Shown in pieces: positions 21,017 through 32,794 of a stretch of 32,937 bases of DNA. The notes under the pieces were generated by a model that was given only the letters and a program-made list of their open reading frames with translations, was not told where the DNA came from and made no database searches. Positions within the stretch are counted from its first letter, which is position 1. Each line of letters opens with the position of its first letter. Position numbers and translations under genes: made by a program. This DNA is from Rhodanobacter sp. 67-28 (GTDB taxonomy: Bacteria > Pseudomonadota > Gammaproteobacteria > Xanthomonadales > Rhodanobacteraceae), in assembly GCA_001898415.1 (NCBI GenBank), contig MKTU01000060.1:1-32937 (forward strand). Direction: 5' to 3'.

Positions 21017-21550
21017 TCAGTGCAGGATGTCGGCCGCGCCGGGTGCGTCCGGCGGCATCTCGCCGGCGGCAGCGTCATCCTGGCCGGCATCGAGCAGGTC
21101 GAGCAGATGCGCCTCGATCCACTCCAGATCGGGGATCATCGCCACGTCGTCGCGTACCAGCACGTGCGCGCGCACGCCGTCGGGCAAGCCCTTGCCGTCG
21201 TGGGTGGGGATGATCAGCTCGGCATTGAGCGTGGTCAGGCGCGGGAAACCCTGGGTCTGCACCGCGATGAACGGCAGGCGCGGATCGCCGCCCAGCGCCT
21301 TGAGCACGGCCACGCGCACCACCAGCTCGCTGTCGCCCTCGGCGGTGCCGGCGAGCTGCGTGAACGACACCAGCGGCACGCGCCAGCCACGCCAGGCGAT
21401 GCGGCCAAGCAGCCAGTGCGGCGCGCCCTCGACCGGCTCGGGCGCGCTGTACGTCACCACCTCCGCGATCGTGGCATTGGGCAGCAGCATGCGCGCTTCG
21501 CCGACCGGCACCAGCACGCAGCGGATTTCACGCGGCAACGGATCACTCAT
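21017..21550 (-). CDS. chpC: ChpC, CheW-like coupling protein of the Pil-Chp system
   Basis: This 177-residue protein consists of one CheW-type domain (about residues 8-145): RCVLVPVGEARMLLPNATIAEVV, then APHWLLGRIAWRGWRVPLVSF, which is the diagnostic CheW strand pair around the receptor/kinase contact. A short acidic tail follows. ChpC is the second coupling protein of the type IV pilus chemosensory pathway and links additional receptors to ChpA. It is the last gene of the pil-chp operon. Its ATG overlaps the chpB stop by 4 nt. Its position and sequence argue for ChpC over PilI, which is encoded separately upstream. Confidence 0.88.
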   Translation of the reverse strand: MSDPLPREIRCVLVPVGEARMLLPNATIAEVVTYSAPEPVEGAPHWLLGRIAWRGWRVPLVSFTQLAGTAEGDSELVVRVAVLKALGGDPRLPFIAVQTQGFPRLTTLNAELIIPTHDGKGLPDGVRAHVLVRDDVAMIPDLEWIEAHLLDLLDAGQDDAAAGEMPPDAPGAADILH

Positions 21551-23328
21551 GGAAACACCTCGATCAGGTGCGCCGCCAGTTCGGACGGCGTACCGGAGAA
21601 ACTGACCAGTCGCTCGGCGAAGATCCCGCTGACCATGTCGGCGAAATGATCCCCGGACGACGATTCGACCCAGACCTGGCCGCCTCGATCATGGATCGCC
21701 TGCGAGCCGGCGATCGCGTCGTTGCCGCGCCCGGCAAAGACGATCGCCACCGCATCGCGGCCGAAGCCGTTCGCGGCCATGCTCAGGCTGGCGTCGATCG
21801 ACGGTTCCGGCGCGGCGTCGGCAAGCAGCTCCACGCTGCCGTCGCGACGCAGGCGAACCTGTTGGCCGGCGGGCACCATCAGCACCTCGCCCATGCCGAC
21901 GCGACGGCCGGCTTCGGCCACGCGTACCGGCAGCGGGCTCTTTTCGGCGAGCCGCGCGAGCATTTCCTGCTCGGTGTGGTTGCCCAGGTGCTGGGTCAGC
22001 AGGAACGTCAGGCGAGTGCTGGCGGGCAAGCTGCGCATGAACTCGCACACCGAGTCGACGCCATCGACCGCCGCGCCGAGCAACACGATCCGGCTCAGCG
22101 CCGAGCCGAGTTCATCCAGCACCATCTCGTGATCCGGCACGAAGGCCTGCGGCGCAATCGCCTCTTCCATCGAGACCAGTTCCAGGCTCATGGTCGGCTG
22201 CAGATCGGCGGCGACCGGCTCCACGTCGGGCGCCAGGAATTCCGCGGCGCTGAGTTTCTCGATGCCGAACGCGGCGGCGTCGGGCTTGTCATTTGATTCG
22301 ACCGGCGCCTCCTCGTCGAGCAAGGCCCAGTTGTCCGGCGCGCGCACCGGCGTCTCGGGTGCGGCGGGCACGACCGACGCAGCGGCATCCATCGCCTCGG
22401 CGGTCAGCTCCGGGGCATCCAGCGCCGAAAAGTCCAGCTCATCGACCGCGGGTGACGGCGCGCTTTCGTCCAGAGCGATGCCGTCGTCGTCGGAATCGGC
22501 CAGTTCCACCACGCCGAAGTCGCCGTCGTGCAACGGCGGCAGCTCCTCGTCGCCGGTGAAGCGCAAGCCCGCGCCGACCGTCTGCTCGTCCTCTTCGTCC
22601 GGCAATTCGCCGGAGGCGAGCAGCGCCTCGAGTTCGGCAGCCAGGTCATCCGATTCGGCGGTGATGCCGGGGTCGGCCGCCGGCTCGATCTCGTCATCGA
22701 ACGGAATGCCGGCGTGCGCATCGAACGCAGCGCCGGGAGCGTCGTCTTCGTTGGCCGCGGTCTGCAGCGGCTCGTCGGCGGGCAGGTCCGGCGGCGGCTC
22801 GTCTGCCATCAGCGGCGTCGCCATATCCTGCGCGATCGGCGCTGCCAGATCGTCTTCTGCCGGCGTGGCGAAGGTCGCGGGCTCGTCGACCGCGTCGCGA
22901 CCAAGGGTCTCCGTCACCACCGGCGCAACCGCTGCGACCAGCGCAGGCGCGACCTGCACCTCGCGCGCATCCTCGGGCCGCGGCGGGTCGATGTCGCCCA
23001 TCGCCAGCACTTTCACCGCCAGGTGGCGCGCCCAGCGCGCACGATCCCAGCCGGACAGCGCGCGGCTGGCCTGGGCATCGTTGAACACCACCCGCGGCCG
23101 GTCGCCGTCGATGATGTCGTACAACTGGTCGAGCGCATCGTCGGCGTCGTCGTCCAGGTTGATCACCAGTACATCCGCGCCCACCTGCTGCAGCAGTTCG
23201 CGGTTCAGCCCGGCCACGCCGCCCTCGTGGACGATCCGCGCGCCGCGCTCGTGCAGCGCATCGCGCAAATGCCCACCGAGTTCGCTGTCGTCGAACAGCA
23301 GCGCGACCGCGGGTGGCGTATCAGTCAT
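21547..23328 (-). CDS. chpB: ChpB, CheB-like protein with degenerate methylesterase site
   Basis: This 593-residue protein has three parts. Residues 1 to about 120 look like a degenerate receiver (VALLFDDSELGGHLRDALHERGA, VLVINLDDDADDALDQLYD). Residues about 125-400 form a long Ala/Asp/Glu-rich linker, probably disordered. Residues about 412-593 align with the CheB methylesterase domain. In CheB the catalytic triad is Ser in GASTGG, His in QHMP and Asp in GMGxDG. Here the first motif reads GAAVDG (Gly418-Ala419-Ala420), so the nucleophile Ser is Ala420. His447 (QHL) and Asp537 (GRGND) remain. The enzyme is therefore probably inactive as a methylesterase and may be structural. The start ATG at 23328 overlaps the chpA end by 8 nt. 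Confidence 0.85.
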   Translation of the reverse strand: MTDTPPAVALLFDDSELGGHLRDALHERGARIVHEGGVAGLNRELLQQVGADVLVINLDDDADDALDQLYDIIDGDRPRVVFNDAQASRALSGWDRARWARHLAVKVLAMGDIDPPRPEDAREVQVAPALVAAVAPVVTETLGRDAVDEPATFATPAEDDLAAPIAQDMATPLMADEPPPDLPADEPLQTAANEDDAPGAAFDAHAGIPFDDEIEPAADPGITAESDDLAAELEALLASGELPDEEDEQTVGAGLRFTGDEELPPLHDGDFGVVELADSDDDGIALDESAPSPAVDELDFSALDAPELTAEAMDAAASVVPAAPETPVRAPDNWALLDEEAPVESNDKPDAAAFGIEKLSAAEFLAPDVEPVAADLQPTMSLELVSMEEAIAPQAFVPDHEMVLDELGSALSRIVLLGAAVDGVDSVCEFMRSLPASTRLTFLLTQHLGNHTEQEMLARLAEKSPLPVRVAEAGRRVGMGEVLMVPAGQQVRLRRDGSVELLADAAPEPSIDASLSMAANGFGRDAVAIVFAGRGNDAIAGSQAIHDRGGQVWVESSSGDHFADMVSGIFAERLVSFSGTPSELAAHLIEVFP

Positions 23329-26300
23329 GAATCGGCTCCGCGGCACGTTGCTCCAGCACCTCGGCGATCTGCAGCAGCAGTTCCGCCTCCTGGTAGGGCT
23401 TTCCGAGGTATCGATCCACGCCGATGTCGAACGCGCGCTGGCGGTGCTTGTCGCCGCTGCGCGAGGTGATCATGATGATCGGCACGTCGCGCAACCGCGG
23501 GTCGGCCTTCATGTGAGTGGCCAGCTCGTAGCCGTCCATGCGCGGCATCTCGATGTCCAGCAGCATCAGGTCGGGTACGCGCTCGTGCAGCTTCTCCAGC
23601 GCGTCGACACCGTCCTTGGCGGTGCTGACCTCGTACTCGTGGCGTTCCAGCACGCGACCCGTGACCTTGCGCATGGTGATCGAGTCGTCGACCACCATCA
23701 CCAGCGGACGTACCAGCACCTCCTCGATGACCGGCGCCTTGACCGCGCTGAGGCCTTCGGCCAGGCGCTGCTCGCGGCGGATCATGCCGTGACGTACGAG
23801 CGGCGCCAGGTCGAGAATGATCAGCACCGAACCATCGCCCATGATGGTGGCGCCGAGCAGGCCCGGCACCGAGCTGATCTGCGGGCCGACCGACTTGACC
23901 ACGATCTCGCGCGAACCGAGCACGGCGTCGATGCGGATGGCCGCGCGCAGGTCGCCCGCGCGGGTCAACAGCAGCGGCTGCTGTTCGTCCTCGGTGGCGA
24001 GGCCGGGCGGCAGGCCGAGCAGCTCGGCCAGGTCGTGGACGCCGTAGTCCTCGTTGCCGTACTGGAACGATGGCTCGTCGGTGGCCAGCAGTGCGGCCAG
24101 GTCTTCCGGATTGACTCGCGCCACGCCCTGTACCGAGGTCATCGGGATGGCGAACGTGGCCTCGCCGATGCGCACCAGGATGGCCTGGGTGACGGCGAGG
24201 GTGAACGGCAGGCGCAGCACGAAGGTGGTGCCCTGGCCTTCCTCCGACTCGATCGACAGCGAACCGCCGAGCTGCTTGATCTCGTTGGCGACCACGTCCA
24301 TGCCGACGCCGCGACCGGCCAGCTGGGTGACCTGACTGGCGGTGGAGAAGCCGGGCTGGGTGATCAGCGACAGCAGCTGATTGTCGGTAGGCCGCGTTTC
24401 CGGACGCAGCATGCCGCGCTCGATGCCGCGCTTGCGGATAGCCTCGCGATTGAGGCCGCGACCGTCGTCGCTGACCCGCACCACCACCTCGGTCGCCTCG
24501 CGGGCCACCTTGATGCGCACCGCGCCCTCGGCCGGCTTGCCCAGCTTGCGCCGCTCGGCCGGACTCTCGATGCCGTGCGCGATGGCGTTGCGCAGCATGT
24601 GCTCGAACGGTGCCTTGATGCGGTCGAGCAGGTTGCGGTCCATTTCGCCGTGCGCGCCGTCGACGTAGAGCTGGGCCTGCTTGTGCTCCTCCTGCGCGGC
24701 CTGGCGCAGGGTGCGGCGCAGATTGGGCACCATCGTGTCGAACGGCAGCATGCGCGTGCGCAGCAGGCCGTCCTGCAGTTCGGTGCTGACCCGCGACTGC
24801 TGGATCAGCAAGGTTTCGGCCTGGCGGGTCAGCTCATCCAGCATGTTCTGGATGGACACCAGATCGGACACCGACTCGGCCAGCGCTCGCGAGTACTGCT
24901 GCAGTTGCGAGTAGCGATCGAGCTCGAGCGGATCGAACGCGGTCAGGCCCGCCTCGCGATGCTCGCGCTGGAAGCGCGCGATGATCTGCGCCTCGGTCTC
25001 GATTTCCAGCATGCGCAGCTGGCTGCGCAGGCGTGCCACGGTCTGTTCCAGCTCGACCAGGTTGAAGCGGTAGCCGGCCACCTGCTGTTCCAGTCGCGAG
25101 CGGTAGATCGCCACTTCGCCGGCATGGTTGACCAGGTTGTCCAGCAGGTCGGCGCGGACGCGGATCTGCTCCTGCGGCGAGTGCGTCTCGCGCGCCGTCT
25201 CGGGCAGCAGCTCGGGCAGGCTGTGCTCGTCCTCATGGGCGACGGGTTGCGGCGCCTCCTCCACCGGCGCGTGCGACGCGTCCGTCGCGGGTTCGGCCTC
25301 GCCGACCAGCGCGGTGGCGCCGGCAAGCTGCAGCAGGTGGTCGATCGCGGCCTGCGGATACTCCGGCATGTGGCCCTGCGACACGCGCTGGACCATCGTG
25401 TTGAGCTGGTCGAAGCTCGCCTCGAGCGCACTGATCAGCGTGCCGGTCTTGTCGGCGTCGCGGATGGGTTTTTCCAGCACCGTCTCGATCGCGTGGGCGA
25501 GGTCGCCCACCGACACCAGGCCTGCGATGCGCGCACCGCCCTTGAGCGTGTGCAGGTCGCGCTGCAGTTCGCCGACGCAGGACGTATCGGCGGGATCGGC
25601 GTGCCACTTGGCGAGCACGCCGTCGGCGCTGTCGAGAATCTCGCGCGCCTCGTCGATGAACACTTCGAGCAGGTCGGCGTCGATGCGGCTACCGTCGGGC
25701 AGCACGAACGCGGGCGCCGGTTCCACCCGAGTCGCGGCGGCCCTGGCGGCGGCCTGCTTGGCAGCCTGCTCGGCCGCAGCTTGTTCGGCTGCCGCCTGTT
25801 CCGCGGCGGCCTGCGCCGCCGCCAGTTGTTCCGCCTGCTCTGCCGCGGCTTGTTCCGCGGCAGCTTGTTCGGCAGCCGCCCGCTCGCGTGCGGCCTCCTC
25901 CTGCGCAGCTTGCTCGGCTGCGGCTTGCTCGGCAGCGGCCTGGCGAGCAGCTTCGGCGGCGGCGTTGGCCGCGGCGATGGCCGCGTCGGGCTCGAAGGCG
26001 CGCAGCGCAGCGGTCATCTCGGCAGCGGCATCCATGTGCTCGTCGTGACCGGTTTCCGCATCGACGCCTTCCGGCGCGGACGGCTCGGCGAGGGTCGGAG
26101 TCGACTCGCGGGCGGTGTCGGCCTCGATGGCCGGCTCGTCCACCGCATCATCGCCCGCTTGCGGCTCGAATATCACATGCGCGACTTGCGACTCGGGGTA
26201 GTCGTCGCGCATCTCGGTGATCTGCGCGGTGAGCGCGTCGACGTTGGGCAACGGCAACGCCGGGGCGTCGAACTGGGCCATTACCTGGTCGACCACGTCG

Positions 26301-29185
26301 GCCGCCTGGCCGAGCAGGCGCACGCCCGACGCGGGCAGCGGCTGGCCGGATGCGCGCAGGCGCTTGAACAGGCCTTCCAGCGGCGACAGCAACTGTGTCA
26401 GCAGCGGGATGTCGACCATCGCGATCGCGCCGTGCAAGGTGTGCACGGCCCGCAGCAGCTCCTCGCTGACCGGCAACGCGCCTTCGCTGCGCTGGATCGC
26501 GGTGCGGATGGTCTGCAGGTACTGGGCAACTTCGCTGCGCAGGATCTCCAGCAGCACCGGATCGATCGGCGGCATCGCCGGCATGTCCACCAGCGGTTCC
26601 GGCTCGGCCGGCACGGGCTCGGCGGCGGCCGCGCTTGCCACGTCGGCATCGGTAAGGCTGGCCCGCGGCACGTCGGCCGCGTCGACGGTGGCGCGCGGCA
26701 CGCGGCGGACCACCGTGCGGGTGACCGTTTCGGTACCGCGCTGCATGAAGTCTTCCACTCGTGCCGGCTGGCCCGCGGCCAGCCGCTCGGCGGCCTGCAT
26801 GATCGCGCTGAGCGGCACCTGCGGATCGCCCTCGCCCTTGAGCGCAGCCAGCAGTTGCGGCAGCGCGTCGATGGCGTGGCGGACCACGTCCTGCACGTTC
26901 TGGTCCGGCTCGATCGTATGGTCGAGGACGCGGTTGAGCATGTCCTCCACCTTCCACGCGAACTCGCCCAGCACGCCGGCGCCGACCAGGCGGCCGGAGC
27001 CCTTCAGGGTGTGGAACGAGCGGCGGATGCCGACCAGCGCCGGCGTCTGCGCCGGGTCGGCCAGCCAATCCTTCTGGGCCACCGCGAGGTTGTCGATCTC
27101 CTCCTGCATTTCCTCCAGGAAGATGTCGCGGATGTCGTCGTCGATGCCTTCGGCATCGGCGTTGAAGCGGGTGTTTGCCGCCAGCGGATCGGCGACGGGC
27201 ACCTGTTCGGTGACCTGCTCCTCGATCTCGACCCAGTCCTCGCCGACGGCGCTGGCCGGGCTCGCCGGTGCGCCGGTCTCCGCCAGTCGCAGCCCGTCGA
27301 GGTCATGCGTGGGTTCGGGCGAAGCCTGCGCGTCGCCGACGAACAGGCTGCCGAGATCGGCGCCGGGCAGCAGGCTGACGGACTCGGAGAGGTCGGGGTG
27401 CTGCTCGGCTTCGAGCGAAACGGAAGCCGGTGCCTCGGCGACCGGCGCGGGCTCCTCCACGGCCGCGCGCTGCGCCGGGACCGGCCAGTAGCCAAGCTGG
27501 GCCAGGCTGTGCTCGGCCACGTCGAGGATGTGTTCGAGGCCGCCACGGTGCTCGCGCGCCGCCTCCAGGTAGTACTCCAGCGCGGCCAGCGCGTCGGCCA
27601 GGTGATCCATCTGCGCACCGCTGGGCACGCGACGGTCCTGCAGCAATTCGTAGTCGATGAACCGGCCCACGCCCTGGGCCAGTTCGGCCGGGCGCGGCGA
27701 GGACAGCATGCGCATGGCGCCGGCCACCTCGTCCATCAACGGCGGCGCACCGGCCAGGCGATCGTGCTGCCAGCCCGACTCCACGAAGGCAACGATCGCG
27801 TCCTTCACCTTGCCGGTGTTGCCGATCGCTTCCTGCATCAGGGTGGAGACCACGCCGAGCGCTTCGCTGCGCGGCAGCCCCTGCGTGGGGTCGGCGGCAG
27901 CGGCAGGTTCGCCTTCGGAGCCGAGGCTCTCGATGTGGTCGTCCAGCGACGCCTCCACGTAGAGCAGCGCGCCGGCGACATCCAGCAGCGTTTCCTCGTC
28001 GGCAGGACGCAGGCGGTTGGCGATTTCGTCGAGCACGCGGCGCTGCTCGCCGACCACGCGGCGCGGCACCGCCAGCGCCAGCATGCCCAGCGTGTCGCCG
28101 ACCCGTTCGAGCACTTCGCCCTGGGCGGCAAGCTGGGCCGGATCGCCGTCCTGCTCGCGCAGGAACAGGTCCAGCGCTTCCTTGACGCGCAGCAGGTCGT
28201 CCTTGAGCGCGCGCGACACCGAATCGAGCAGGGCGCGGTTGTGCCCGGCCATCGAGCCGCGGGCGTGTTCCAGTTCACCGGCATCGGGCAGCAGGCTGTC
28301 CAGCGCGTAGGTGCTGCGCAACAGCTCCATGTGCGGGCTGCGCTGCTTGGCCTGGGCCACGATGTAGAGCAGCTTGCAGGCCACCTCGTCGGCATCGCTC
28401 GCGCGCAGGCTGTTCTCGCCATGTTCGATCAGCAGGCGGATGTTGCGATCCACCTTGCCGATCAGCTGGCGCACTTCGGGGGCGTGCCCCTTGAGCATGC
28501 CTTGTTCGAGACCTTCCAGCACCCCGGCGGCGATCCACCACAGGCGCCGGCCATGCACGTGATAACAACGCGCAGTGATCGCCAGCAGGGTCTTGCGCAT
28601 GGCGACCAGTTGCTGGGCCGCATCCTGGCCGCGGAACCACGCCAGCAACTGCTGCTGGAAACGCAGGCGCAAACCGGCCAGCTCCACGCGGTGCGCCGCG
28701 GCATAAGCCTCGCTCATCGCCGCCGGAGCCTGCTCCGGCAGGAAGGCGTCGAGGTTCGGATGGAACATCGACGACTCGGGCAGCGGCTCCAGCCCGCGGG
28801 TGGCACGCAAATCGTTCAGCAGCGGCAGCAGCACCACCGGCACGTCGCGATGGCCGCTGGACAGCCGTTCCAGGTAGTCCGGCAGCTGCATCAAGCCACG
28901 CATCAGGGCGGCGTAGGCTTCCTCGCGCTGGAGCACCTGGTCGTTCAACAGCGCGCCGACCAGGGCCTCCATCTCCGCGGTGACCGCCGCCGCGCCGTAC
29001 AGCTCGACCATCTTCAGCGTGCCGTGCACCTGATGCAGATGATCCGTGCAGGTGCGCATGAAATCGCGCTTCCCCGGATTGTCGACGTACGACTCCAGTG
29101 CCTCGCGGGCGATCGACAAGGTGTCGTCGAGTTCCGGCTTGACCCACTGCAGCGTGGTGAAATCGATGTGGTCTTGAAGTCTCAT
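23321..29185 (-). CDS. chpA: ChpA, multi-Hpt hybrid CheA-type histidine kinase
   Basis: This 1954-residue kinase is the core of the type IV pilus chemosensory pathway. The N-terminal Hpt-like domain has LHQVHGTLKMV (His54). Further phosphotransfer domains have SFHTLKGSG (His725), VHTLHGAIA (His915, lacking the usual Lys) and LHTLKGGAR (His1212). An AAAEQ-repeat linker spans about residues 1060-1150. The CheA core follows: dimerisation helices, N box HMLRNAIAHGIE, G1 DDGRGLN, G2 GRGVGMD, then a CheW-like domain. The C-terminal receiver has phosphoacceptor Asp1877 (LLDIEMPRMDG). In Pseudomonas aeruginosa ChpA is longer (about 2470 residues) with more Hpt, Spt and Tpt domains, so this is a shorter version. 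It phosphorylates PilG and PilH. A GAGAGG ribosome-binding site precedes the ATG. Confidence 0.95.
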   Translation of the reverse strand: MRLQDHIDFTTLQWVKPELDDTLSIAREALESYVDNPGKRDFMRTCTDHLHQVHGTLKMVELYGAAAVTAEMEALVGALLNDQVLQREEAYAALMRGLMQLPDYLERLSSGHRDVPVVLLPLLNDLRATRGLEPLPESSMFHPNLDAFLPEQAPAAMSEAYAAAHRVELAGLRLRFQQQLLAWFRGQDAAQQLVAMRKTLLAITARCYHVHGRRLWWIAAGVLEGLEQGMLKGHAPEVRQLIGKVDRNIRLLIEHGENSLRASDADEVACKLLYIVAQAKQRSPHMELLRSTYALDSLLPDAGELEHARGSMAGHNRALLDSVSRALKDDLLRVKEALDLFLREQDGDPAQLAAQGEVLERVGDTLGMLALAVPRRVVGEQRRVLDEIANRLRPADEETLLDVAGALLYVEASLDDHIESLGSEGEPAAAADPTQGLPRSEALGVVSTLMQEAIGNTGKVKDAIVAFVESGWQHDRLAGAPPLMDEVAGAMRMLSSPRPAELAQGVGRFIDYELLQDRRVPSGAQMDHLADALAALEYYLEAAREHRGGLEHILDVAEHSLAQLGYWPVPAQRAAVEEPAPVAEAPASVSLEAEQHPDLSESVSLLPGADLGSLFVGDAQASPEPTHDLDGLRLAETGAPASPASAVGEDWVEIEEQVTEQVPVADPLAANTRFNADAEGIDDDIRDIFLEEMQEEIDNLAVAQKDWLADPAQTPALVGIRRSFHTLKGSGRLVGAGVLGEFAWKVEDMLNRVLDHTIEPDQNVQDVVRHAIDALPQLLAALKGEGDPQVPLSAIMQAAERLAAGQPARVEDFMQRGTETVTRTVVRRVPRATVDAADVPRASLTDADVASAAAAEPVPAEPEPLVDMPAMPPIDPVLLEILRSEVAQYLQTIRTAIQRSEGALPVSEELLRAVHTLHGAIAMVDIPLLTQLLSPLEGLFKRLRASGQPLPASGVRLLGQAADVVDQVMAQFDAPALPLPNVDALTAQITEMRDDYPESQVAHVIFEPQAGDDAVDEPAIEADTARESTPTLAEPSAPEGVDAETGHDEHMDAAAEMTAALRAFEPDAAIAAANAAAEAARQAAAEQAAAEQAAQEEAARERAAAEQAAAEQAAAEQAEQLAAAQAAAEQAAAEQAAAEQAAKQAAARAAATRVEPAPAFVLPDGSRIDADLLEVFIDEAREILDSADGVLAKWHADPADTSCVGELQRDLHTLKGGARIAGLVSVGDLAHAIETVLEKPIRDADKTGTLISALEASFDQLNTMVQRVSQGHMPEYPQAAIDHLLQLAGATALVGEAEPATDASHAPVEEAPQPVAHEDEHSLPELLPETARETHSPQEQIRVRADLLDNLVNHAGEVAIYRSRLEQQVAGYRFNLVELEQTVARLRSQLRMLEIETEAQIIARFQREHREAGLTAFDPLELDRYSQLQQYSRALAESVSDLVSIQNMLDELTRQAETLLIQQSRVSTELQDGLLRTRMLPFDTMVPNLRRTLRQAAQEEHKQAQLYVDGAHGEMDRNLLDRIKAPFEHMLRNAIAHGIESPAERRKLGKPAEGAVRIKVAREATEVVVRVSDDGRGLNREAIRKRGIERGMLRPETRPTDNQLLSLITQPGFSTASQVTQLAGRGVGMDVVANEIKQLGGSLSIESEEGQGTTFVLRLPFTLAVTQAILVRIGEATFAIPMTSVQGVARVNPEDLAALLATDEPSFQYGNEDYGVHDLAELLGLPPGLATEDEQQPLLLTRAGDLRAAIRIDAVLGSREIVVKSVGPQISSVPGLLGATIMGDGSVLIILDLAPLVRHGMIRREQRLAEGLSAVKAPVIEEVLVRPLVMVVDDSITMRKVTGRVLERHEYEVSTAKDGVDALEKLHERVPDLMLLDIEMPRMDGYELATHMKADPRLRDVPIIMITSRSGDKHRQRAFDIGVDRYLGKPYQEAELLLQIAEVLEQRAAEPIHD

Positions 29186-29288
29186 GCGCCTCTCTCAGCG
29201 GTCACGCCATGCGGGCATTGCGAAACCAGCGAGACTGCCCCCCGTACTGTGCGTGTATTCATCCGGCTGCTGCCCACGTCGAGCAAAA

Positions 29289-31319: not shown

Positions 31320-31453
31320 GTTCACCTCATCGGTCTAACTGATATGTGCCGCCCATACGCACCGGCCCCTGCCGCGCTGCCCCGAAGCGGGTGCCGGCCT
31401 TCCGGTCTCCCCGCTCCAACCGCACGGCATCCCCTGCCGGCTTCACCCGGTCG

Positions 31454-31993
31454 TCAGGCAGCCGCCTGACGGAAATCCGGTGCACGCACGAGCCGGTTCA
31501 TGCTGAAAATCGCCAGTTGCTGCTCGCCCACCCGGTTGTCCACGAAACGCGCCAGCCGCGGATCGGCTTCTTCCTGCGCCTGCTGGCGCTGCTCCGCGTC
31601 CACCGTGCGCTGGCCGAGGACCTCGTCCACCAGCAAGGCGACGCTGCCGCCGCCCTGGCGCACCACCAGCAACCGGCTCCGATCGGAATGCTGGGTGCGT
31701 TCGCCGAACAGGAAGCGCCCGATGTCCACCACCGGCACCAGGTTGCCGCGCACGTTGGCCACGCCGAGCAGCCATGGCTGGGTGCCAGGCACCGGGGTCA
31801 GCACCGGCACGGCGAGCAGCTCGTTGATCTCGTCGATGCCGCTGACCAGCAGCCTGGAACCGACCCGGAAACCGATGCCGCGCCACAGGCCCGGTGCCTC
31901 GAACTTGTCCTGGGTATCGGAGGCATGCGCCAGCGACAGCCGCTCGTAGCGCGCCAGAATCTCGAACGGGGTACGGTTGGCGCTCTGGTTCAT
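31454..31993 (-). CDS. pilI: PilI, CheW-like coupling protein
   Basis: This 179-residue protein starts with a short N-terminal extension (MNQSANRTPFEILARYERLS) typical of PilI. A CheW domain follows: GIGFRVGSRLLVSGIDEINELL, PWLLGVANVRGNLVPVVDIGRFL and LLVVRQGGGSVALLVDEVLGQRTV. It bridges PilJ and ChpA in the membrane-associated signalling array. Its ATG overlaps the pilH stop by 4 nt, indicating translational coupling. The 134-nt gap to pilJ holds no further gene. Confidence 0.94.
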   Translation of the reverse strand: MNQSANRTPFEILARYERLSLAHASDTQDKFEAPGLWRGIGFRVGSRLLVSGIDEINELLAVPVLTPVPGTQPWLLGVANVRGNLVPVVDIGRFLFGERTQHSDRSRLLVVRQGGGSVALLVDEVLGQRTVDAEQRQQAQEEADPRLARFVDNRVGEQQLAIFSMNRLVRAPDFRQAAA

Positions 31994-32361
31994 GAGCCGC
32001 TCGACAGCAGATCGTTGATGCAGGCCAGCAGGTCTTTTTCGTTCACCGGCTTGGTGATGAAGGCGCGCGCGCCCTGGCGCATGCCCCAGACGCGATCGGT
32101 TTCCATCGACTTGGTGGTGATCATCACCACCGGCACGTGCTGGGTCTTGGGGTCGCGGGTGAGCGTACGGGTGGCCTGGAAGCCGTTCATGCCGGGCATG
32201 ATGACGTCCATGATGACCAGGTCAGGCTGTTCGGCGCGCACGCGCTCGATGCCCTCCTCGGCCGTGCTCACGGCTGCCACGTGGTGCCCGGCCCGCTCGA
32301 GCAGCGTGGTGAACACGCGTACGTCGGTGGGTGAGTCGTCGATGATGAGAATGTTTGCCAC
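31990..32361 (-). CDS. pilH: PilH, single-domain response regulator
   Basis: This 123-residue receiver-only protein has the acidic pair Asp8/Asp9, phosphoacceptor Asp52 (VIMDVIMPGMNGFQATR), the switch residues ITTK and the conserved KP lysine near the end (FITKPVNEKDLL). NGFQATRTLTRD with TDRVWGMRQGARAF is diagnostic of PilH. PilH acts as the counterpart of PilG, favouring pilus retraction or serving as a phosphate sink. The start codon is a GTG at 32361 with a strong GAGGGGGAG about 5 nt upstream. It lies 22 nt after pilG. Confidence 0.95.
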   Translation of the reverse strand: MANILIIDDSPTDVRVFTTLLERAGHHVAAVSTAEEGIERVRAEQPDLVIMDVIMPGMNGFQATRTLTRDPKTQHVPVVMITTKSMETDRVWGMRQGARAFITKPVNEKDLLACINDLLSSGS

Positions 32362-32383
32362 AGCTCCCCCTCAGGGTCTGCAG

Positions 32384-32794
32384 TCAGTGACTTGCTGCAG
32401 TACTGACATGTCGATGGATTGCGCCAAGCAGCTCGTCACGGGTGAACGGCTTGGTCAGGTATTGTTCGGCGCCGACGATGCGGCCGCGCGCCTTGTCGAA
32501 GAGTCCGTCCTTGGAGCTGAGCATGATCACGGGCGTGGCGCGGAACTCGGGGTTGTTCTTGATCAGGGCGCAGGTCTGATAGCCGTCGAGGCGGGGCATC
32601 ATGATGTCGACGAAGATGATCGCCGGCTTCTGGTCGGAAATCTTGGCCAGCGCCTCGAACCCGTCGACCGCGGTCAGCACCTCGCAGCCCTCTTTCTTCA
32701 GCAGGGTCTCGGCGGTGCGGCGGATGGTCTTGGAGTCATCGATCACCATGACCTTGAGGCCCGCCAAATCGGTAACGCTCACGTTCAAATTCAC
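32384..32794 (-). CDS. pilG: PilG, single-domain response regulator
   Basis: This 136-residue receiver-only protein has the near-invariant PilG sequence GLKVMVIDDSKTIRRTAETL, phosphoacceptor Asp63 (IIFVDIMMPRLDGYQTC), and VIMLSSKDGLFDKARGRIVG with the KPF lysine (YLTKPFTRDELL). PilG promotes pilus extension and, in Pseudomonas, adenylate cyclase activation through FimV/FimL. The start is a GTG at 32794 with a GGGGGAG site just upstream. Conservation with P. aeruginosa begins at about residue 12, so the first residues are lineage-specific. It is the first gene of the pil-chp operon. Confidence 0.96.
   Translation of the reverse strand: MNLNVSVTDLAGLKVMVIDDSKTIRRTAETLLKKEGCEVLTAVDGFEALAKISDQKPAIIFVDIMMPRLDGYQTCALIKNNPEFRATPVIMLSSKDGLFDKARGRIVGAEQYLTKPFTRDELLGAIHRHVSTAASH

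What the first reader, a model, noticed from the sequence alone, without database searches (positions are those of the whole stretch)
21547..23328. ChpB looks like a pseudo-methylesterase: catalytic Ser replaced by Ala
The CheB domain motif GASTGG, which holds the nucleophile Ser, reads GAAVDG here (Ala420), while the His (QHL, His447) and Asp (GRGND, Asp537) of the triad are kept. By the established CheB mechanism, loss of the Ser abolishes receptor demethylation. The N-terminal receiver also looks degenerate, and a ~275-residue acidic linker has been gained. The operon seems to retain ChpB as a scaffold or sensor rather than an enzyme.
Basis: partly seen in the sequence, partly recalled or inferred. 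Interest (0 to 1): 0.72.

Follow-up and report, generated by a model that had tools for sequence, protein, structure and literature searches.

The report
ChpB pseudo-methylesterase lacking its methyltransferase partner
In this soil bacterium (Rhodanobacter) the pilus-steering system keeps a protein that looks like the enzyme which erases receptor methyl marks, but its cutting residue is gone and so is the partner enzyme that would write those marks; related bacteria lost both repeatedly, which suggests the protein now works without catalysis.

Summary
Minus strand 23328-21547 encodes a 593-aa ChpB whose CheB domain reads GAAVDG (Ala420, codon GCG) where CheB has GASTGG; His447 and Asp537 are kept. 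Near-identical database copies carry the same change.
It is not isolated. The operon has no pilK (methyltransferase). Of 154 deduplicated Xanthomonadales pil-chp loci, all 32 with pilK have an intact ChpB active-site motif; of 104 without pilK, 80 are degenerate, including one without the CheB domain and one without the gene; 18 are unknown. All 5 ChpB inactivations with known PilK state fall on PilK-loss branches. Of 37 PilK-less genomes without any CheR, 24 (two of them Rhodanobacter) keep a degenerate ChpB, 12 an intact one, one has lost it; PilJ's predicted methylation pairs persist there.
Best reading: a genuine pseudo-methylesterase, kept under constraint after its methyltransferase was lost. 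The non-catalytic (scaffold/docking) role is inferred. The unrecognised receiver and long linker are not specific: triad-intact ChpBs have them too. In the window's own genome flagellar CheR/CheB could still act on PilJ.

The parts
21547..23328 (-). chpB, 593 aa: receiver-like domain, acidic linker, CheB-fold domain without the nucleophile Ser
22996..23316 (-). N-terminal receiver-like domain (residues 5-111), ending near the conserved GWDRARWARHLAVK stretch
22114..22971 (-). acidic low-confidence linker (residues 120-405)
   Evidence: 26% D+E, 2% K+R; pLDDT mostly under 60
21550..22098 (-). pseudo-CheB domain (residues 411-593)
22069..22071 (-). Ala420 (GCG), position of nucleophile Ser164
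21988..21990 (-). His447, position of His190
21718..21720 (-). Asp537, position of Asp286
23321..29185 (-). chpA (CheA-like, Hpt domains, receiver); its end overlaps the chpB start by 8 bases
29186..29288 (-). 103-base pilJ-chpA gap, where PilK+ relatives carry pilK; no pilK here
   Evidence: the only CheR match in the genome is on contig C26
29289..31319 (-). pilJ receptor, 676 aa; predicted methylation pairs Gln411-Glu412 (30089-30084) and Glu622-Gln623 (29456-29451)
21017..21550 (-). chpC (CheW-like)
31443..32794 (-). pilI, pilH, pilG (pilH and pilG are receiver proteins; pilI is named by position, with no Pfam hit)

Best explanation
ChpB of this Rhodanobacter is a pseudo-methylesterase. 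Shown by sequence: the CheB nucleophile and its loop motif are gone; the predicted fold, the His and the Asp remain; pilK is absent; the same pairing recurs across Xanthomonadales. Inferred: with PilK lost, PilJ had no dedicated methylation to reverse, the esterase site was free to decay, and the protein was kept because it still does something non-enzymatic. Most likely it docks through its conserved N-terminal receiver-like domain (GWxxARWxRHLxxK) and its folded pseudo-CheB domain onto the polar PilJ-ChpA array or PilG, tuning array assembly or polarity rather than receptor methylation. Loss of catalysis: about 0.9. Non-catalytic retained function: about 0.6. The specific partner is a guess.
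For: Active-site alignment to solved CheBs. Eleven residue columns are at least 93% one letter in 64 triad-intact ChpBs but have another commonest letter in a 27-member Rhodanobacter-type clade; ten are the CheB positions 164-168, 281, 283, 304, 309 and 310, the eleventh is 202; His190 and Asp286 stay (that these positions lie at the active site is partly recalled, not measured). PilK: 32 of 32 PilK+ loci intact, 80 of 104 PilK- degenerate, 18 of 154 unknown. Of 6 inferred inactivations, the 5 with known PilK state are all on PilK-loss branches; loss and PilK- branches together make up 31% of the opportunity, p about 0.003 if independent, under irreversible loss. Of 24 CheR-less genomes searched further, 23 have one CheB-domain match, at chpB (one has none), and 23 have one MCP over the cut-off. 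Degenerate CheB domain: median dN/dS 0.25 in 264 pairs of this clade. Fold retained in the model. Three loci keep only the N-terminal domain and linker.
Against: No biochemical test. The independent-pairs test is underpowered (4 pairs on starred branches, p 0.125-0.5, none discordant). Three of 8 inferred PilK losses (family f12 and two lineages holding Dokdonella) left ChpB intact. Relative to ChpC, the CheB domain has dN 2.1 times in this clade against 1.4 in PilK+ loci, so it is somewhat relaxed here. The nucleophile letter drifts (80 A, 10 S, 5 T, 1 E, 1 G of 97; at least 9 changes), one member of the wider clade has also lost the His (L061, 1 of 28), and one PilK-less locus lost the whole gene, as slow decay would give too. 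This genome has a flagellar-type CheR and CheB. One paper lists pilK in the Xcc operon (PMC7698356, passage), against the absence seen in the two Xanthomonas-like loci here (L085, L088); X. campestris itself was not sampled by name.
Confidence: 0.65

Rival explanations
1. ChpB is simply decaying: after PilK loss there is no function left, and the gene has not yet been removed.
For: Nucleophile letter changes at least 9 times in the clade; chpB absent in L107 and CheB domain absent in L161, L168, L200; relative dN of the domain raised in this clade.
Against: Degenerate ChpB reading frames persist in 59 genus codes on the tree; dN/dS well under 1; His and Asp both kept in 27 of 28 members of the wider clade.
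Confidence: 0.2
2. PilJ methylation was handed to the flagellar CheR and CheB, so Pil-Chp still adapts by methylation and ChpB is redundant.
For: This genome has CheR and a triad-intact CheB on contig C26; PilJ keeps the predicted site pairs; 44 of 69 PilK- genomes with degenerate or missing ChpB have another CheR.
Against: 24 PilK- genomes with degenerate ChpB, including Rhodanobacter G093 and G146, have no CheR match at all, nor has one that lost chpB. In all 37 CheR-less PilK- genomes PilJ keeps pair 1, and in 36 of 37 pair 2, so conservation of the pairs does not show methylation.
Confidence: 0.15
3. The protein is still a hydrolase, using another nucleophile.
For: His and Asp of the triad are kept; Ser and Cys occur a few residues downstream in the window protein.
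Against: The nearby Ser426 is Ala in many close relatives; the loop glycine and the positions of Met283, Cys309 and Val310 are also altered.
Confidence: 0.05
4. Sequencing or assembly artefact.
For: None found.
Against: 53 of 121 aligned proteins carry the same motif set, and relatives carry other replacements at the same place.
Confidence: 0.01

Closest known systems
Pseudomonas aeruginosa ChpB (Pil-Chp system)
   Same: Same operon position and partners (PilG, PilH, PilI, PilJ, ChpA, ChpC); ChpB not thought to be phosphorylated (PMC12632253, passages)
   Different: P. aeruginosa ChpB is described as a methylesterase needed, with PilK, for PilJ methylation in vivo (same review, citing Patino 2025, which is not held here); this locus lacks pilK and the nucleophile. 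The P. aeruginosa sequence itself was not fetched.
CheB protein-glutamate methylesterase (1chd, 1a2o, 3sft, 6ymz)
   Same: Fold of the catalytic domain; His and Asp of the triad
   Different: No nucleophile Ser, no Gly-Gly after it, no Pfam receiver match, long acidic linker
Xanthomonas and Stenotrophomonas ChpB, named CheB or protein-glutamate methylesterase in databases
   Same: ChpB retained without pilK in the two Xanthomonas-like loci sampled (L085, L088)
   Different: Separate event on the tree; Gly at the nucleophile position and no His in 120 of 120 listed hits (of 1686), and no Asp in the aligned column (one gap), though a nearby Asp makes that column less sure; the following Gly-Gly mostly kept
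Pil-Chp clusters of Ralstonia solanacearum, Acinetobacter baumannii and A. baylyi
   Same: No pilK between pilJ and chpA, by the papers' gene lists
   Different: chpB and chpC reported missing in the first two (PMC7056806, PMC8088505, passages), not retained as a pseudoenzyme; for A. baylyi only the pilG-chpA gene list was seen (PMC5542475, passages)

Membership tests
CheB methylesterase (as an enzyme) | CheB catalytic-domain fold | tested here: met
CheB methylesterase (as an enzyme) | nucleophile Ser in GxSxGG | tested here: not met
   GAAVDG
CheB methylesterase (as an enzyme) | His and Asp of the triad | tested here: met
   His447, Asp537
CheB methylesterase (as an enzyme) | phosphorylatable N-terminal receiver | tested here: inconclusive
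   receiver-like fold, tied with flavodoxins, and no Response_reg match; the same lack of a match in five triad-intact ChpBs
CheB methylesterase (as an enzyme) | measured esterase or glutaminase activity | not testable with these tools
   needs biochemistry
ChpB of the Pil-Chp operon (as an orthologue) | position between chpA and chpC in a pilGHIJ-chpABC operon | tested here: met
ChpB of the Pil-Chp operon (as an orthologue) | co-encoded PilK methyltransferase | tested here: not met
   103-base pilJ-chpA gap; the only CheR match lies on another contig

The most novel reading that the evidence does not exclude
In a large part of Xanthomonadales the type IV pilus chemosensory system runs with no receptor methylation, and ChpB is a structural component whose enzyme site is dispensable; the Gln/Glu pairs of PilJ taken for methylation sites are kept for a different reason.
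Probability: 0.4. Interest if true: 0.75.

Novelty: new variant of a known kind. Interest (0 to 1): 0.6.

Why it matters
ChpB is treated as an adaptation enzyme, and Xanthomonas and Stenotrophomonas entries are named CheB or methylesterase although nucleophile and His are gone in the 120 listed hits. If the protein persists without catalysis, part of ChpB's role in pilus steering is non-enzymatic. The 37 surveyed PilK-less genomes without any CheR match, two of them Rhodanobacter (24 of the 37 were also searched for CheB and MCP domains, and 23 of these have a single MCP over the cut-off), offer natural tests of how a pilus chemosensory array works without methylation, and they caution that PilJ's predicted methylation motif is no evidence of methylation by itself.

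Tried and rejected
PilK 'fragments' in seven loci were spurious: they matched the leader of one untrimmed query ORF and vanished with trimmed queries. L069 was first scored PilK-less because of an overlong ChpA frame; it has pilK. The idea that linker growth goes with inactivation was rejected. PilJ site loss as a sign of lost methylation was looked for and not found. P. aeruginosa's third predicted site was not surveyed; the window's PilJ has Gln638-Glu639 there by number. N-terminal conservation is inflated, because most rows were cut out with a pattern for that very motif (23 loci did not match); one search is used instead. PilK- status was judged at the pilJ-chpA gap; a pilK moved elsewhere is excluded only in the 37 CheR-less genomes. 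Alignment of the active site in Oleiagrimonas (L052, L147) is ambiguous (differ); both readings are degenerate.

Dropped or unknown rows: of 200 loci labelled (120 unnamed including the window, 80 named), L089 and L091 were not the pil-chp locus; L107 and L155 have no ChpB ORF (L107 gene absent, L155 contig end); L115 (frame broken) was dropped before the tree; L148 is 10 bases and was never labelled. PilK is unknown in 36 of the 196 loci with a ChpB and in 18 of 154 on the tree, which also leaves out loci with no or under 350 aa of ChpA and those with identical ChpA ends. Six of 114 genomes, all with PilK unknown, were left out of the CheR searches. The single partial sub-cutoff CheR match of G212 was counted as none. 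One CheR-less genome is only 85% complete (G141, intact ChpB). dN/dS pairs are not independent and dS is partly saturated, most of all in f2 (median 0.52 for CheB, 0.45 for ChpC; PilK+ 0.44 and 0.40), so clades should not be compared by it. The tree is a quick LG+G4 tree with long branches.

Literature: (all 10 searches; listings with abstract starts) showed no paper on an inactive ChpB or on a link with PilK loss. Only passages were read, of PMC12632253, PMC10896506, PMC3927602, PMC7056806, PMC7698356, PMC5542475, PMC8416617 and PMC8088505. Most subscription papers are not held, so this is no proof of absence.

Full report

NOT AN ERROR, BUT NOT FIXED. Of 121 aligned proteins (120 listed of 766 hits, plus the window's), 53 share the exact motif set; among the 120 hits 8 have Ser, 1 Gly and 1 Thr at the nucleophile position. 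In a tree of 97 CheB domains of the Rhodanobacter-type clade the letter is A 80, S 10, T 5, E 1, G 1, with at least 9 changes. The Ser-bearing forms still lack the following Gly-Gly; whether they are active is unknown. Eleven residue columns are at least 93% one letter in 64 triad-intact ChpBs but have another commonest letter in the 27-member clade: CheB positions 164-168, 281, 283, 304, 309, 310 and 202. The window itself keeps the second glycine (Gly423) and has Asp422 for the first.

THE MISSING PARTNER. The pilJ-chpA gap is 103 bases; in relatives pilK lies there. The genome's only CheR match is on contig C26, near a second, triad-intact CheB. I examined pil-chp loci of 120 unnamed entries (the window among them) and 80 named ones. 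Of 196 loci with a ChpB, PilK+ 41: 41 intact; PilK- 119: 36 intact, 83 degenerate; unknown 36: 22 intact, 14 degenerate. Deduplicated to 154: PilK+ 32 of 32 intact; PilK- 24 of 104 intact, 80 degenerate; unknown 18. No PilK+ locus in the set has a degenerate ChpB. Under irreversible loss there are 8 PilK losses and 6 ChpB inactivations; the 5 with known PilK state all lie on PilK-loss branches, so the order of the two events is not resolved. If independent, the chance that 5 of 5 fall on PilK-loss or PilK-less branches is about 0.003; the sign test on independent pairs has too few pairs to decide (p 0.125-0.5, none discordant). Three PilK losses (f12 and two lineages holding Dokdonella) are not accompanied by inactivation.

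HOW FAR IT GOES. Of the 120 listed Xanthomonas/Stenotrophomonas-type ChpBs (of 1686 hits), 120 have Gly for the nucleophile and none has the His; of the 120 listed hits (of 322) to a triad-intact ChpB query, all keep S-H-D. Two Xanthomonas-like loci (L085, L088) lack pilK, although one paper lists pilK in the Xcc operon (PMC7698356, passage). In Lysobacter capsici AZ78 the locus tags (pilI 4389, chpA 4391, chpB 4392, chpC 4393; PMC8416617, passage) leave room for one gene only between pilI and chpA, consistent with no pilK there (inference). L161, L168 and L200 retain only the N-terminal domain and linker; L107 has lost chpB. Of 108 genomes searched for CheR, 37 PilK-less ones have none: 24 with degenerate ChpB, 12 with intact ChpB, one without chpB; 48 PilK-less ones have another CheR (44 degenerate, 4 intact); 22 are PilK+ and intact; 1 has PilK unknown. 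In 24 CheR-less genomes searched further, 23 have one CheB-domain match, lying at chpB, and one has none; 23 have one MCP over the cut-off and G409 has two. Receptor methylation by a known CheR thus looks impossible there, yet among the 37 PilJ keeps pair 1 (QE) in 37 and pair 2 (QQ or EQ) in 36. The intact, CheR-less cases may use CheB's glutaminase activity (recalled for CheB); that is untested.

WHY KEEP IT. The degenerate domain evolves under constraint: median dN/dS 0.25 (264 pairs) against 0.17 for ChpC and 0.20 for the N-terminal domain; its dN relative to ChpC is 2.1, against 1.4 in PilK+ loci, 1.65 in PilK- intact loci and 1.4 in degenerate f2 loci, so somewhat relaxed in this clade. 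In a 64-sequence alignment G93, W94, A97, R98, W99, R101, H102, L103 and K106 of the N-terminal domain are at least 90% conserved across intact and degenerate forms, and the three domain-less proteins keep most of the stretch. In P. aeruginosa, PilG is needed for ChpB to localise to the leading pole (PMC12632253, passage), which makes PilG a candidate partner; this is inference.

CONCLUSION. What is new here is the pattern: repeated loss of the writer (PilK) with decay of the eraser's active site while the eraser protein mostly stays. The non-catalytic role and its partner remain inferred.

Noticed in passing
window 30089-30084 and 29456-29451 (PilJ): PilJ's predicted methylation pairs are conserved even in relatives with no CheR match in the genome, so the motif is kept for another reason there.
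   Followed up: partly
L062, L066, L068, L076 (f12); L051, L056, L140-L145, L149, L151-L153 (lineages holding Dokdonella): Triad-intact ChpB persists without pilK, and in 12 genomes without any CheR match; a glutaminase or other role is possible.
   Followed up: partly
L107:14232-15014: chpB is missing between chpA and chpC; the spacer holds what look like short interspersed repeats.
   Followed up: no
L161:8865-9977, L168:1857-3053, L200:4438-5463: ChpB reduced to the N-terminal domain plus linker, with chpC starting close behind.
   Followed up: partly
window 25733-25942 (chpA): Tandem repeat of a 69-base (and 15-base) unit encoding an Ala/Glu/Gln-rich stretch of ChpA.
   Followed up: no
P0219: A ChpB of Xanthomonas/Stenotrophomonas type deposited under Bacillus subtilis; probably a mislabelled or contaminated record.
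   Followed up: no
L176: A MAG record titled Xanthomonas sp. groups with family f12, not with the Xanthomonas-like loci, on the ChpA tree.
   Followed up: no
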